Part shown: positions 1,210 to 10,960 of the stretch, one piece after another | How the letters are laid out: every line of letters starts with the position of its first letter | How positions within the stretch are numbered: the first letter of the stretch is position 1 | Virus record (IMG/VR): IMGVR_UViG_3300046321_000197 | Span: 1-24,340 of that record | From: a virus | Reading direction: 5' to 3' (one strand) | DNA length: 24,340 bases | Notes under the pieces: model-generated | What the model was told of the DNA's origin: nothing | Database searches by the model: none | Seen by the model: only the letters and a program-made list of their open reading frames with translations | Position numbers and translations under genes: made by a program

Positions 1210-1214
1210 TGGTT

Positions 1215-1778
1215 TTATTTTAAAGTTTTAGCACCCTCCACTTGAATCACTCATGGTTCCCTATTAGGGGATAGAATAATTTAAGCAATTGGGTCGCGTA
1301 AAAAGATAACGTTGATGTTATGAAGTGGGATTAATCTTCAATACAACTCATCCATGTACATTGCCGAGAACTCATTTGTATTGTAGTGTAATAGAATAAC
1401 CACCCCTTTCACTCTGAATCTTAACTCCTTTCTCAAGGGAGCAATACATCTAGGGTTACCCCATAAGCTAGCAATACGAAATCCACTATTCTAACAAACA
1501 CAATGGTTTGACTTACATGCTGTCATTTCAGCATTAGTATCTTTATGTAAGCTTAATATAACTACACATTTAACTGCATACACAGCACTTACAAAGGTTT
1601 AATGTTTAGCCGTTATCATAAAATCATTTTACTCCGCCAATAGAGATACACAAAACGCATAAACTCGTTAAAATCTCATTAAAAAAAGTTCAAAATCCCT
1701 TCTCTATTGACTCGGCGGCTTTAGCCCTGCTTGAAAAACCACTAACATTACAGGGCTATTTAAACTAAAAGGAAAATA
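1215..1778 (-). rRNA. Non-coding structured region with divergent LSU rRNA-like (domain I) sequence
   Basis: There are no credible ORFs across about 565 bases. Read on the minus strand, 1440-1403 follows the conserved 23S domain I block around E. coli nt 440-490: TGAG, AAAGG, AAGA and AGAGTGAAA occur in the E. coli order with short deletions. Upstream, GCTA (about 1471) and AGATGT (1451-1446) line up weakly with the sequence before that block, and downstream ACAAATGAGTT resembles the TATAATGGGTC region near nt 540. The 5' part (1778-1500) is strongly structured: AGCCCTG/CAGGGCT; CCGCC+AATAGAGA pairing with TCTCTATT+GGCGG; ATGCTG/CAGCAT. It also has scattered domain IV/V-like words (CCGAGTCA, TTTTGAAC, ACGG, AACCTTT) that I cannot place firmly. 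Boundaries are approximate. Confidence 0.5.
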
Positions 1779-3599: not shown

Positions 3600-3815
3600 T
3601 TACTTTCTTCTTAATACAACGTGCCATTGTGGTGTTAATCCACTAAATGCGCTGCTAATTATTACTACTCCTTTAGATACTACTCGATATGAGCGTTTAC
3701 CTGTTACCGTATCACCTACAGCTAAATGTCTTAATTCAGACTCAATACCTAATTCTTCATAATCAGGATGAGTCATTGGAATTTCTTCATTGAATTCCGT
3801 TGTTAATTTGTACAT
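3600..3815 (-). CDS. Hypothetical small strand-rich protein (71 aa)
   Basis: I chose the ATG at 3815 rather than the upstream GTG at 3836, because it overlaps the end of the preceding gene by 13 bases and gives a compact protein starting MYKLTTEFNEEIPMTHP. The C-terminal half is beta-rich (AVGDTVTGKRSYRVVSKGVVII) and resembles small SH3-like or OB-like barrels in pattern only. It is in the same string of small genes downstream of the LSU-like RNA region. Confidence 0.5.
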   Translation of the reverse strand: MYKLTTEFNEEIPMTHPDYEELGIESELRHLAVGDTVTGKRSYRVVSKGVVIISSAFSGLTPQWHVVLRRK

Positions 3816-4066
3816 GGTTGAAATGTTTTTAACCACACCTTAAACAACTCTATGTTGTCTTCCACGGTGCATGCGTTACTTAATTCAGCTGTAAAGAATC
3901 CTTTGTATCTTGGATTCCATTTTACATACTTTAGTTTGTGCTCTTTAAGGAATGCTACTAATATCTCATTAGGCTTCTTTCCATTTCCAAATGCATCTAG
4001 ACCTTTATCAAGCATAAGCTTTCTAATTCTATACGCGTTGTTCGTTAATCTTGTTAAATTGCTCAT
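3803..4066 (-). CDS. Hypothetical protein (87 aa)
   Basis: This is a small basic protein with an N-terminal helical half (MSNLTRLTNNAYRIRKLMLD) and aromatic-rich middle (KYVKWNPRYKGFF). The start at 4066 is preceded by an A-rich leader (AAAAAAGAAAACA) and lies just downstream of the 3' end of the LSU-like RNA. No family recognised. Its position next to the rRNA-like segment makes it worth testing for RNA binding, but nothing in the sequence proves that. Confidence 0.5.
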   Translation of the reverse strand: MSNLTRLTNNAYRIRKLMLDKGLDAFGNGKKPNEILVAFLKEHKLKYVKWNPRYKGFFTAELSNACTVEDNIELFKVWLKTFQPCTN

Positions 4067-4084
4067 TGTTTTCTTTTTTAATTA

Positions 4085-4495
4085 ATAATAGCCATTCTAG
4101 CATAGTGTGTTGTTACACCAAATTCTCAACGGAATCTACATTAGCTTTGCTGTTTACTCACACGTTAGCCGCAAGTAAATCTCTATGTTCACGACATAAA
4201 GAATAACAGGTTAAGTCCCGGATCCTCTCGTACAAGGGAACCTTACTAATCATTGAGCTACTCGCCTGAATATATCTAATGCTTTCCTGAGGATCTACGA
4301 CATTTCAGTGTTATAGCAGGTTACATTATCAAATTTTCGCTTTTACTCCTCCCAGAATCCTAGTAAATGTGACGCTAACATTGTCTCTTTACTTTTTATC
4401 GTTACGTTTACGATTACTTTCATCCTTTGAAACTCTTTAAATGATGGCTACTTCCAGGCCCACATCCTAGTGCGTCTCTGAATGGCTAATATTAA
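4085..4495 (-). rRNA. Divergent, abridged LSU (23S) rRNA-like segment: helix 43, PTC-like, sarcin-ricin loop, domain VI
   Basis: No ORF lies on this strand. Read on the minus strand, 4471-4434 matches E. coli 23S nt 1051-1088 (helix 43 of the GTPase-associated centre) at 32 of 38 positions by eye; the A1067 equivalent is G. Helix 44 is replaced by another hairpin. Next comes GGATGAAAG (like the 2446 PTC strand), then AATGTTAGC-GTCACAT (like 2502-2518; A2503-U2506 kept). AATGTCGT (near 2590) follows. 68 nt later (63 in E. coli) comes the sarcin-ricin core GTACGAGAGGA, identical over 11 nt at 4233-4223, with flanking GTTCC/GGGAC pairing. The helix 97-like GCTAACGTGTGAGTAAAC begins near 4170. 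All elements are in 23S order and strand. Exact ends are unknown; most of domains I-IV are absent here. Confidence 0.75.
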
Positions 4496-4501
4496 TAATA
4501 G

Positions 4502-4540
4502 AAAACTAAGACACTCAAAGTGTTAGAATGTCTCAGTTTT
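4502..4540 (-). other. 12-bp hairpin upstream of the LSU-like segment
   Basis: On the minus strand AAAACTGAGACA (4540-4529) pairs with TGTCTTAGTTTT (4513-4502), with one G-U pair. An inner CACTTTGAGTG hairpin fills the loop. It could be a terminator or a folded spacer separating the tRNA-like element from the LSU-like segment. There is no clean U-tract after it. Confidence 0.5.
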
Positions 4541-4598
4541 AATCATACGCAAGGCTACTTAGATATTCCTTGTGTTGCAGTTGCACGTTGATTTTTAG

Positions 4599-4661
4599 AG
4601 AGAATGGAGGCTTATCGAGGCCTCATACGTTTATTGCTTTTACCATTTAAGCTACATCCTC
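4599..4661 (-). other. tRNA-like element without an anticodon arm
   Basis: On the minus strand the acceptor strands GAGGATG and CATTCTC pair over 7 bp (one G-U) and are followed by U as discriminator. T8-A9, a D arm GCTT-AAATGGTAA-AAGC with the invariant GG, and a T-like arm GAGGC-CTCGATAA-GCCTC are all in place, but only 11 nt (AATAAACGTAT) separate the D and T arms, so there is no normal anticodon arm. The 5' end lies eight bases after the stop of the AAA+ gene, ahead of the LSU-like segment. A tRNA-mimic processing signal for RNase P/RNase Z is a reasonable inference; a decayed tRNA is the alternative. Confidence 0.5.
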
Positions 4662-4668
4662 CGGATCT

Positions 4669-5481
4669 TTATAGAGTAAGTTTAGATTGAAATGAAATCT
4701 CTTTCACAACTGACTCTTCTAATAATCCTCCTTTTATGAAATACTGATGAACTAGAGTGTTTATTAGTCTAGCTCCAATTGTATTCATTTCAAAGTTATT
4801 TTTTACTACTTCTTTTATTCTATTTACAACTACGTTTTTATCTACTGAATCAAACAAAGCCAAATACTTGTCGATTAAACTAGATGAGTCTATGATGTTG
4901 TTCATGTCTTCTATAGTTAGTGGACATGTATTAAATACTAATCCAACTCTTCCTAAGAATTCAGTTTTTATACCTATTTCTCTCAATCTATCTATTGTAA
5001 TGTCTTCTTCACCATTGAATGCTCCTGCAAATACAAACAATGTATTGCTTATTGGCACGTTCACGTATTTACCGTAATCTCCAAATACAGATGCTGTATC
5101 AGATTCTAATACTTTTAAGAATTCATTCTGAACACCTGTTGTAGATTCATGAGCGCAACTGTCATTACTGTTTCCAGATATGAATAGCTTATCAAACTCA
5201 TCTACAAATACAACAGTAGGTTTTCCTCCTGTTTGTCCAAGTGGAGATAATGCTTTAGATAACGAATTACCTGACGTTCCTTCTTTAGTCAATTGGGCTG
5301 CATTAACTTCAATGAAGCCTAGATTAAATTTCTTTGCTAATTGAGCTATTGTAAATGATTTACCTGATCCAGACGGACCTGTTAACAAGAAATGAGGTCT
5401 TATCTCAGATCCTGACGCTCTAAATATCTCGAATATTTTACTTGTTTCTTTAACTAATTCTACTTGTCCTACAATTCCCAT
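4669..5481 (-). CDS. AAA+ ATPase, ClpX/HslU-like (270 aa)
   Basis: The Walker A motif GPSGSGKS is at residues 35-42 and the Walker B motif VVFVDEFDK at about 90-98. There is a sensor-1-like strand (TLFVFAGAFNG, about 150), the ClpX-type segment EFLGRVGLVF (about 174-183) with its putative Arg finger, and a sensor-2 helix with GAR (about 236-238). The length is just the AAA+ module: there is no zinc-binding N-domain and no obvious ClpP-docking loop, so it is more likely a stand-alone remodelling ATPase than a protease unfoldase. The gene sits between a tRNA-Gln-like gene upstream and the tRNA-like element and LSU-like segment downstream. A role in ribonucleoprotein assembly is speculative. Confidence 0.75.
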   Translation of the reverse strand: MGIVGQVELVKETSKIFEIFRASGSEIRPHFLLTGPSGSGKSFTIAQLAKKFNLGFIEVNAAQLTKEGTSGNSLSKALSPLGQTGGKPTVVFVDEFDKLFISGNSNDSCAHESTTGVQNEFLKVLESDTASVFGDYGKYVNVPISNTLFVFAGAFNGEEDITIDRLREIGIKTEFLGRVGLVFNTCPLTIEDMNNIIDSSSLIDKYLALFDSVDKNVVVNRIKEVVKNNFEMNTIGARLINTLVHQYFIKGGLLEESVVKEISFQSKLTL

Positions 5482-5504
5482 AATTTCTATTGGTTTTAAA
5501 TTTG

Positions 5505-6786: not shown

Positions 6787-6820
6787 TTTGTGGTTGATTA
6801 AATTAAAGTTGTTTTTATAA

Positions 6821-6847
6821 TGGCTCGATGTATTTCACATCGAGCCA
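6821..6847 (-). terminator. 11-bp perfect hairpin at the 3' edge of the SSU 5'-domain-like RNA
   Basis: TGGCTCGATGT and ACATCGAGCCA pair around a 5-nt loop. On the minus strand it follows the 530-loop-like hairpin and is followed by an A-rich, not U-rich, stretch. It may be an RNA 3'-end stabiliser or processing hairpin rather than a classical terminator. Confidence 0.5.
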
Positions 6848-7165
6848 AATTTTATAACCAATATTACTGCTTCGCGAACTCAACAATATTAAGGTTCAAT
6901 AAATCTGTTTCATGCAAGGATATTATAGATTGATCAACATCTAATCCTCTTCGTTGATTTATTTGCAACCATAAGCAATATTCTCTACGTGCTTATGATG
7001 TGTGATTCATTTTGAATCACCAAGTCATTTTGTCTAGCAATGGTCTACCTAGACTGAATGTATTTGCCTACATTGAAACACACGTTAGTTATTCTTACTC
7101 TTCTTCTGAATAGTGCACAGAATGGAGATTATTAATAAGATTTCTGCATTTCTTATTAACACAGT
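6848..7165 (-). rRNA. Divergent SSU (16S) rRNA 5'-domain-like segment
   Basis: There is no ORF. On the minus strand GTAGAGAATATTGC, then ATGG, then GCAA (6988-6963) matches the E. coli 16S block GTGGGGAATATTGC..ATGGGCGCAA near nt 350-385; GAATATTGC is identical over nine bases. Upstream hairpins (GTCTAG/CTAGAC; GTGATTC-AAAAT-GAATCAC at 7020-7002) sit where helices 12-13 would be. Downstream GAAGAGGATTAGATGTTGATCAA resembles GAAGAAGG..GGGTTGTAAA of helix 16. A hairpin at 6896-6856 (AACC/GGTT outer stem, AATATT/AATATT inner stem, about 19-nt loop ending GCAGT) has the architecture of helix 18, the 530 loop. The order and strand match 16S. Confidence 0.65.
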
Positions 7166-7658: not shown

Positions 7659-7883
7659 TTACTCATTTAATTTGTTTAATGAGCCATTAAAGATTTGATA
7701 TGCAATATATAATGCACCTATTCCAACTATCTTAGATAGAAGAAGAGTGTATAATGAGCCATCATTATCAATTGGCTCTGATATCATTAATACGAATCCT
7801 CCTAATGAGAGAACTATTAATGCTAGAAGTTTAATCATTGCGAATATATTATACGCTAATAATCTTGTGTTTGGTAAATTCAT
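7659..7883 (-). CDS. Small two-span membrane protein (74 aa)
   Basis: There are two hydrophobic segments, about residues 14-34 (IFAMIKLLALIVLSLGGFVL) and 49-64 (LSKIVGIGALYIAYQIF), separated by an acidic loop (EPIDNDGS). The start at 7883 lies eleven bases downstream of one copy of a 23-nt repeat, possibly a regulatory element. Unknown role. Confidence 0.5.
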   Translation of the reverse strand: MNLPNTRLLAYNIFAMIKLLALIVLSLGGFVLMISEPIDNDGSLYTLLLSKIVGIGALYIAYQIFNGSLNKLNE

Positions 7884-7893
7884 GTGGTTGAGG

Positions 7894-7965
7894 TTTTATC
7901 TAATGATTGAAGTTTAATATAAAGCCTTACACTACATAAGGCTTTTATCTGATGATTGAAGTTTA
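7894..7965 (-). repeat. Two 23-nt direct repeats flanking a stem-loop
   Basis: The 23-mers at 7894-7916 and 7943-7965 (TTTTATCTRATGATTGAAGT then TTA on the plus strand) differ at one base. Between them AAAGCCTTA/TAAGGCTTT (about 7920-7945) forms a hairpin. On the minus strand the array lies between the 93-residue gene and the 74-residue gene, so it can be a terminator plus duplicated leader or operator. Confidence 0.6.
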
Positions 7966-7988
7966 ACATAACCCTATAAGGGCAACAA

Positions 7989-10523: not shown

Positions 10524-10548
10524 AATATAGTGATTTTATTGATTAAAA

Positions 10549-10577
10549 CAAAGATAATACATTTTTTATTATAACAA
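10549..10577 (-). promoter_or_regulatory. Leftward Bacteroidota-type promoter
   Basis: On the minus strand TTG (10577-10575) and TATCTTTG (10556-10549) are 18 bp apart, a perfect -33/-7 pair, upstream of the 84-residue gene. Confidence 0.8.
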
Positions 10578-10581
10578 TGTA

Positions 10582-10611
10582 TTGTTTTTACTAAAACTTG
10601 TTGTATCTTTG
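10582..10611 (+). promoter_or_regulatory. Rightward promoter for the leader RNA and tRNA array
   Basis: TTG (10582-10584) and TATCTTTG (10604-10611) are 19 bp apart. Only about five bases separate it from the leftward promoter, so both may share one control region. Confidence 0.85.
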
Positions 10612-10617
10612 CAAAGT

Positions 10618-10960
10618 CGCAATGTCTCAATAGGGAGATAATATCAAGAGGTATTGAATATGCATTGGATGCAACGGTATTGAATTGAAAATGGTCCCGT
10701 TATTATAGTAACTTATTCCTAGTGAACCAACATAAGCAATGATATTAGTGCTCCGAGAGATAAAACGGGTGTTAGTTGGACATAATTCTAGTATGCTTTA
10801 CTTGATCTGAAATGGTTAAGGATTCCTGATAAGCCAAGATAATATAAAAAGAACCTATACCTATCCTCTGGACAGGAACCTCTTCTTTTCTTTAAAAGAA
10901 ATAATATTAAAGTAATCACGGAAGTGAAACAAACATAAAGACATTAGTCTAAATTATATC
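10618..10960 (+). ncRNA. Long untranslated leader of the tRNA transcript, possible LSU domain IV-like RNA
   Basis: Transcription should start near 10618, but the first recognisable gene is a tRNA at 10961, leaving about 340 nt with no ORF. It carries words in the order of 23S domain IV into V: AACGG, GGTCC, TAGTAAC-TT-ATTCCT (like the helix 69-71 strand GGTCC..TAGCGAA-ATTCCT), AATGA, CTCCGAGA, ACGG and GCTTTACTTGATCTG (like CCTTTACTATAGCTTG near nt 2075). The spacings differ from E. coli by up to tens of bases, so this is only suggestive. A processed leader or a distinct small RNA are the alternatives. Confidence 0.35.

What the first reader, a model, noticed from the sequence alone, without database searches (positions are those of the whole stretch)
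4599..4661. Anticodon-less tRNA-like element ahead of the LSU-like RNA
A good acceptor stem, T8-A9, D arm with GG and a T-like arm are present, but the anticodon arm is reduced to 11 nt. Its place between the ATPase gene and the LSU-like segment, like the tRNA-Met and tRNA-Gln-like genes flanking other non-coding pieces, suggests tRNA punctuation: RNase P and RNase Z sites that free the rRNA fragments.
Basis: partly seen in the sequence, partly recalled or inferred. Interest (0 to 1): 0.75.

Follow-up and report, generated by a model that had tools for sequence, protein, structure and literature searches.

The report
Phage tRNA missing its anticodon arm
A tailed-phage genome carries a 63-base relative of transfer RNA that has lost the arm that reads the genetic code; it sits at the very end of an inserted ATPase gene cassette, so if it does anything it probably marks a cutting site in the transcript, and it is not tied to the ribosomal-RNA-like piece next to it.

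Summary
Minus strand 4661-4599 folds as a tRNA without an anticodon arm: 7/7 acceptor pairs, U8-A9, a 4-bp D arm with GG and a 5-bp T arm, joined by an 11-nt linker. Rfam's tRNA model picks out exactly these bases (28.0 bits, cut-off 29, E 1.5e-4 in 81 nt). Chance gives about 0.01 such elements per window.

A close relative (portal 93% identical; locus L234) has the same neighbourhood without the element. In the window, three blocks are inserted there. The tRNA-like element is the exact 3' end of one 905-nt insert that also holds the ATPase. The LSU-like RNA is a separate 428-nt insert, beyond a conserved stem-loop and a 15-bp terminator-like hairpin. That RNA belongs to a family I counted in 65 phage loci; members usually carry their own closing helix and mostly lack a tRNA nearby.

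Best reading: a tRNA remnant that keeps the RNase P/RNase Z determinants and would cut between the ATPase message and the stem-loop/terminator, not release the rRNA-like piece. The shape is not recurrent in related phages. Passive remnant is the main rival.

The parts
4599..4661 (-). tRNA-like element without anticodon arm (acceptor 4661-4655/4606-4600, D arm 4652-4636, linker 4635-4625, T arm 4624-4607, discriminator U 4599)
4597..5501 (-). 905-nt insert relative to close relative G003/L234: ATPase gene plus tRNA-like element, placed between tRNA-Gln and the conserved stem-loop
   Evidence: synteny alignment; ATPase not found in 27 portal-related records
4669..5481 (-). AAA+ ATPase (ClpX-like phage ATPase, 270 aa)
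   Evidence: Pfam AAA E 1.5e-14; relatives up to 75% identity
5504..5577 (-). tRNA-Gln(TTG), canonical, 5' neighbour of the insert
   Evidence: 95% identical block in L234
5803..5875 (-). tRNA-Met(CAT), canonical
   Evidence: 92.8% block in L234
5583..5798 (-). 216-nt insert between tRNA-Met and tRNA-Gln, absent in G003; no ORF of 60 aa or more, folds as a structured RNA
4541..4596 (-). conserved small stem-loop region that follows tRNA-Gln in the relative and the tRNA-like element here
   Evidence: 92% identity over 4596-4495; fold
4502..4540 (-). 15-bp hairpin with T-rich 3' arm, terminator-like, between tRNA-like element and LSU-like RNA
   Evidence: z -4.22, 0 of 200 shuffles as good
4084..4493 (-). 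LSU-like (GAC) RNA: closing helix 4493-4480/4097-4084, GTPase-associated-centre 5' half about 4470-4434 (23S 1052-1088), sarcin-ricin loop about 4233-4223, GAC 3' half about 4119-4105
3803..4066 (-). 87-aa ORF downstream, conserved in G003 (84% aa), marks the end of the compared locus

Best explanation
The element is a tRNA gene relative that has lost its anticodon arm and therefore cannot decode. It is the distal end of an inserted ATPase cassette placed between tRNA-Gln and a small stem-loop/terminator. Its acceptor-T stack and D/T elbow nucleotides are still those that RNase P and RNase Z measure. In the polycistronic transcript, RNase P would cut at its 5' end, releasing the ATPase message 7 nt after its stop codon, and RNase Z or 3' trimming would cut at its 3' end, about 7 nt before the small stem-loop. 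This recreates the tRNA/stem-loop junction that tRNA-Gln provides in the relative. It thus punctuates the ATPase cassette, not the LSU-like RNA. Shown: the structure, tRNA homology, insert boundaries and absence from the relative. Inferred: transcription as one unit, and cleavage. Not shown: that cleavage is selected for.
For: All 16 stem pairs are intact, and Rfam's tRNA model aligns over its full length. The D-loop GG and T-loop UCGA core are kept; RNase P and RNase Z read the elbow and the acceptor-T stack, not the anticodon (PMC4919913; PMC11693755). The element is the exact 3' end of insert 2 and abuts the stem-loop that follows tRNA-Gln in the relative. Pair 53-61 is C-G where 458 of 478 phage tRNAs have G-C, so both sides differ from the norm while pairing is kept. 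Precedent for the mechanism: mascRNA and menRNA are processed by RNase P and RNase Z without a normal anticodon arm (PMC11693755).
Against: It is a singleton: no orthologue to test covariation, absent in G003. Short elements of this kind are no commoner than chance in 2.68 Mb of related loci: 8 observed, 9.1 expected. Only 2 other ATPase loci have a tRNA or tRNA-like element right after the stop codon, so an ATPase-tRNA unit is not general. The T loop is 8 nt and starts with C. The 3' half scores only at the 11th percentile of phage tRNAs, as expected for decay. There are no transcript data.
Confidence: 0.5

Rival explanations
1. A decaying tRNA pseudogene with no role: a tRNA gene carried in with the ATPase cassette lost its anticodon arm by a short deletion and has not yet lost its other arms. 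It may be cleaved incidentally.
For: 5' half typical of phage tRNAs (58th percentile) but 3' half weak (11th percentile); odd T loop; singleton, not recurrent; absent in the relative; other sub-threshold tRNAs are common in these phages.
Against: All three stems are fully paired, with a both-sides difference at pair 53-61; exact placement at the insert edge next to the stem-loop.
Confidence: 0.35
2. One reading: the element's 3' cleavage frees the LSU-like rRNA fragment, as part of a tRNA-punctuated fragmented rRNA.
For: Same strand and order; 16 of 65 GAC RNAs have a same-strand tRNA within 100 nt.
Against: A conserved stem-loop and a 15-bp terminator-like hairpin lie between; the two are separate inserts; most GAC RNAs have no tRNA nearby; L045 has the GAC RNA abutting a stop codon; GAC RNAs have their own closing helix.
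Confidence: 0.07
3. Chance fold or a plain terminator: the T arm plus following CATTCTCTCT acts as a weak terminator and the cloverleaf is accidental.
For: The T-arm hairpin is listed by the terminator scan.
Against: Rfam tRNA match with E 1.5e-4 over the whole model; about 0.01 expected per window; a far stronger hairpin follows at 4540-4502.
Confidence: 0.06

Closest known systems
Canonical tRNA (Rfam RF00005)
   Same: Acceptor stem, U8-A9, D arm with GG, T arm adjacent to acceptor; full-length model match at 28.0 bits
   Different: No anticodon arm; below the gathering score of 29; 8-nt T loop, C53-G61; not called by ARAGORN
mascRNA / menRNA (tRNA-like 3' ends of MALAT1 and MENbeta; PMC11693755)
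   Same: Small tRNA mimic lacking a normal anticodon loop, located at the 3' end of another transcript; elbow kept for RNase P and RNase Z
   Different: Those have a longer anticodon-equivalent stem and a smaller D arm, and proven processing; this one has no stem there at all, is in a phage and is untested; no homology claimed
tRNA punctuation / plant mitochondrial t-elements (from general knowledge; related papers listed)
   Same: tRNA or tRNA-like structures between coding and stable-RNA units as cutting sites
   Different: Organellar; here one element in one phage, function inferred
Bacterial Y RNA (YrlA, RF02553)
   Same: tRNA-like module without decoding role
   Different: No match to the window element at E<=10 in 81 nt; no Y-RNA stem

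Membership tests
functional tRNA | 7-bp acceptor stem with U8 | tested here: met
   7/7 pairs, T8 A9
functional tRNA | D arm with G18 G19 | tested here: met
   GCTT/AAGC with loop AAATGGTAA
functional tRNA | T arm with 7-nt TTCRA loop and G53-C61 | tested here: inconclusive
   5-bp stem and UCGA core present, but loop is 8 nt, C54 and C53-G61
functional tRNA | anticodon arm (5 bp + 7 nt) | tested here: not met
   11-nt unpaired linker AATAAACGTAT
functional tRNA | Rfam gathering score / ARAGORN call | tested here: not met
   28.0 against 29 bits; not called
RNase P/RNase Z punctuation element | 12-bp acceptor-T stack and elbow nucleotides | tested here: met
   7+5 bp, GG and UCGA; elbow rule from PMC4919913
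RNase P/RNase Z punctuation element | cleavage at both termini | not testable with these tools
   no transcript or enzyme data
RNase P/RNase Z punctuation element | conservation of the shape with compensatory changes in relatives | tested here: inconclusive
   no orthologue; only covering relative lacks it
mascRNA-like | tRNA mimic at 3' end of a longer RNA | tested here: met
   starts 7 nt after the ATPase stop codon
mascRNA-like | common ancestry with mascRNA | not tested
   not claimed; vertebrate family
YrlA Y RNA | match to RF02553 | tested here: not met
   only RF00005 matches in 4590-4670 up to E 10
tmRNA tRNA-like domain | tmRNA gene around the element | tested here: not met
   ARAGORN finds no tmRNA in the window; Rfam none

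The most novel reading that the evidence does not exclude
A phage-borne, decoding-incompetent tRNA that has been kept purely as a processing mark: RNase P/RNase Z punctuation that lets a gene cassette be inserted into a tRNA/stable-RNA operon while giving the ATPase message and the downstream stem-loop clean ends. It would be a bacterial-virus counterpart of mascRNA.
Probability: 0.3. Interest if true: 0.6.

Novelty: new variant of a known kind. Interest (0 to 1): 0.38.

Why it matters
If it is processed, it shows that phages can use tRNA mimics as cutting sites in place of promoters and terminators when new cassettes land in tRNA operons, a bacterial-virus parallel to tRNA punctuation in mitochondria and to mascRNA. 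If it is a remnant, it is a clear intermediate of tRNA loss in a phage. Either way, the comparison separates it from the neighbouring rRNA-like RNA, whose family is the more important discovery in this window.

Tried and rejected
(1) Same shape near other LSU-like (GAC) RNAs or ATPases: a structural scan of 95 loci, a covariance model of anticodon-less tRNAs on 87 loci and a T-arm-based count with shuffled upstream control gave no excess. Weaker look-alikes with shorter acceptors: L191:763-813 and L073:2763-2714; L004:2850-2912 has a canonical T arm. (2) ATPase-tRNA as one mobile unit: of about 65 ATPase loci only L008/L263 (odd tRNA, 25.4 bits) and L009/L266 (canonical tRNA-Met) have it. (3) Split or intron-bearing tRNA: no canonical T arm or better acceptor partner downstream. 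(4) tmRNA or Y RNA: no match. (5) Insert 2 as an integrase product with a duplicated tRNA-Gln end: the element's 3' part does not resemble the tRNA-Gln 3' end (by eye). (6) The first Rfam search over 2.6 kb did not list the element, presumably because of its speed filters; the 81-nt search found it. (7) Paper searches for phage anticodon-less tRNA-like elements and phage-encoded rRNA fragments listed nothing on either; the library is open-access only.

Full report
WHAT WAS CHECKED. The window is a 24,340-base viral record with a P22-type portal by a weak Pfam match and 12 tRNA genes. Its portal relatives include phage genomes of about 95-103 kb. From gene content and size I take it for a Crassvirales-like phage of Bacteroidota; that is inference, not tested. 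The finding lies on the minus strand between an AAA+ ATPase gene (5481-4669; Pfam AAA) and a segment that resembles part of 23S rRNA.

Minus 4661-4599 folds into a three-arm tRNA: 7 acceptor pairs (one G-U), T8 A9, a 4-bp D arm with a GG-bearing loop and a 5-bp T arm directly next to the acceptor, while the place of the anticodon arm holds an 11-nt linker. A descriptor scan found this place and no other in the window, and 4 hits in 379 shuffled windows. In 58.5 Mb of block-shuffled sequence the full 7/7 and 4/4 architecture occurred 21 times, about 0.009 per window. The descriptor was written with the element in view. The better evidence is independent: Rfam's tRNA model, given 81 bases, matches exactly 4661-4599 over all its positions, skipping only the anticodon arm, at 28.0 bits (gathering score 29), E 1.5e-4. 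A covariance model made from 46 phage tRNAs with the anticodon arm cut out ranks it third in the window, level with the true tRNA-Gln (20.3 against 20.1 bits). So it is a tRNA homologue, not a chance fold.

WHAT IS ODD IN IT. The first 14 nt score like an average phage tRNA (58th percentile), but the last 25 nt are at the 11th percentile. The T loop has 8 nt (3 of 478 phage tRNAs), begins CTC (1 of 478), and pair 53-61 is C-G (1 of 478; G-C in 458). The elbow core is kept: GG in the D loop, UCGA in the T loop. C53-G61 means both sides of a near-invariant pair differ from the norm while pairing is kept. That is a hint of selection on the stem, but one sequence cannot prove it. No alternative 3' half for a split or intron-bearing tRNA exists downstream.

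THE COMPARISON THAT DECIDES MOST. One close relative covers the locus: the 97,443-base record behind L099, portal 93% identical, locus L234. Aligning the two gives four shared blocks and three inserts in the window. Shared: tRNA-Met (92.8%), tRNA-Gln (95%), a block of 102 nt made of a small stem-loop and a 15-bp hairpin (92%), and the 87-aa ORF (84% aa). Inserts: 216 nt between the two tRNAs (5798-5583); 905 nt after tRNA-Gln (5501-4597), which is the ATPase gene plus the tRNA-like element; and 428 nt before the ORF (4494-4067), which is the LSU-like RNA. The tRNA-like element is the very 3' end of the ATPase insert. The ATPase was not found in 27 portal-related records; many of these are fragments, so the direction (gain in the window rather than loss in the relative) is likely, not proven. 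In the relative, the small stem-loop begins a few bases after tRNA-Gln; in the window it begins a few bases after the tRNA-like element. The element has taken the place of a tRNA at that junction.

tRNA punctuation is reasonable, but its products would be the ATPase message (RNase P cut 7 nt after the stop codon) and the stem-loop/terminator, not the LSU-like RNA. Between the element and that RNA lie about 106 nt with the conserved stem-loop and a 15-bp terminator-like hairpin (z -4.2). Both occur in the relative without the ATPase/tRNA-like block and without the LSU-like RNA.

THE LSU-LIKE RNA IS INDEPENDENT. It carries the two halves of the 23S GTPase-associated centre (about 4470-4434, matching E. 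coli 23S 1052-1088, 89% over 37 nt; and GGTGTAACAACACAC) around a variable domain holding a sarcin-ricin loop (GTACGAGAGGA), inside a closing helix 4493-4480/4097-4084. Pattern scans found the same design in many phage contigs; I counted 65 distinct RNAs. Among 60 non-redundant ones the flanks form a helix of at least 7 pairs in 70%, against 14% when flanks of different RNAs are mixed. Most members lack the sarcin-ricin loop. Only 16 of 65 have a same-strand tRNA within 100 nt (11 upstream, 10 downstream, 5 both), and in L045 the RNA starts right after a stop codon. These RNAs do not depend on a tRNA-like element ahead of them.

IS THE SHAPE RECURRENT? No. Among 572 canonical T arms in 252 loci (2.68 Mb), 8 have a 7/7 acceptor partner giving a 40-66 nt element, against 9.1 expected with shuffled upstream sequence. 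Of about 65 ATPase loci, two others have a tRNA or tRNA-like element right behind the stop codon: L008, an odd one at 25.4 bits, and L009, a true tRNA-Met.

MECHANISM. RNase P and RNase Z measure from the elbow along the acceptor-T stack and do not need the anticodon arm (PMC4919913). mascRNA and menRNA show that a tRNA mimic without a normal anticodon arm, placed at the 3' end of another RNA, is cut by both (PMC11693755). The window element has the same determinants, so cleavage is likely (inference). Whether the phage depends on it cannot be told from one sequence. I give 0.5 to a punctuation role for the ATPase cassette and 0.35 to a passive remnant.

VERDICT. Interest is moderate because the element is a singleton of a known kind with one arm missing; the neighbouring GAC RNA family deserves its own study.

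Noticed in passing
window 4493-4084 (minus); L045, L059-L097, L174-L233 and others: A phage RNA family carrying the 23S GTPase-associated centre (split by a variable insert) inside its own closing helix; 65 distinct members counted, no Rfam match for it in the window. In the window, L045 and L089 the insert also holds a sarcin-ricin loop: a possible free-standing mimic of the ribosome's factor-binding site. Much more interesting than the finding itself.
   Followed up: partly
L336:1122-1290 (Flintibacter muris, NZ_CALPCP010000004.1): The same GAC RNA in a sequenced bacterial contig, apparently identical in its core to viral loci L061/L083/L090, so probably a prophage.
   Followed up: no
window 5798-5583 (minus): 216-nt insert between tRNA-Met and tRNA-Gln, absent in the close relative; no ORF of 60 aa or more, folds at -38.9 kcal/mol with pairing ends.
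   Followed up: no
window 4596-4495 (minus); L234 about 1501-1602: Small stem-loop of about 54 nt plus a 15-bp hairpin, 92% conserved between the two phages, directly behind the tRNA cluster; possibly a small RNA with terminator.
   Followed up: partly
L091:701-815, L176:7723-7842 and 7858-7976, L224:10091-10218, L231:3279-3154: tRNA-like genes of 115-128 nt with normal acceptor, D and T arms whose anticodon region is replaced by a longer structured stretch (introns or another RNA class); not called by ARAGORN.
   Followed up: no
L222:5498-5439: A 60-nt tRNA-like gene without a D arm but with an anticodon-like arm, reminiscent of mitochondrial tRNAs; may be chance.
   Followed up: no
L008:3097-3178: Odd tRNA-like gene (25.4 bits) directly behind a relative of the window's ATPase, with a GAAA-type loop in a predicted 5-bp stem where an anticodon loop is expected.
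   Followed up: partly
window 1212-1775, 6790-7165, 10530-10958: Long stretches without convincing ORFs in a dense phage genome; candidate structured RNAs, not rRNA-like by blastn to E. coli rRNA.
   Followed up: no
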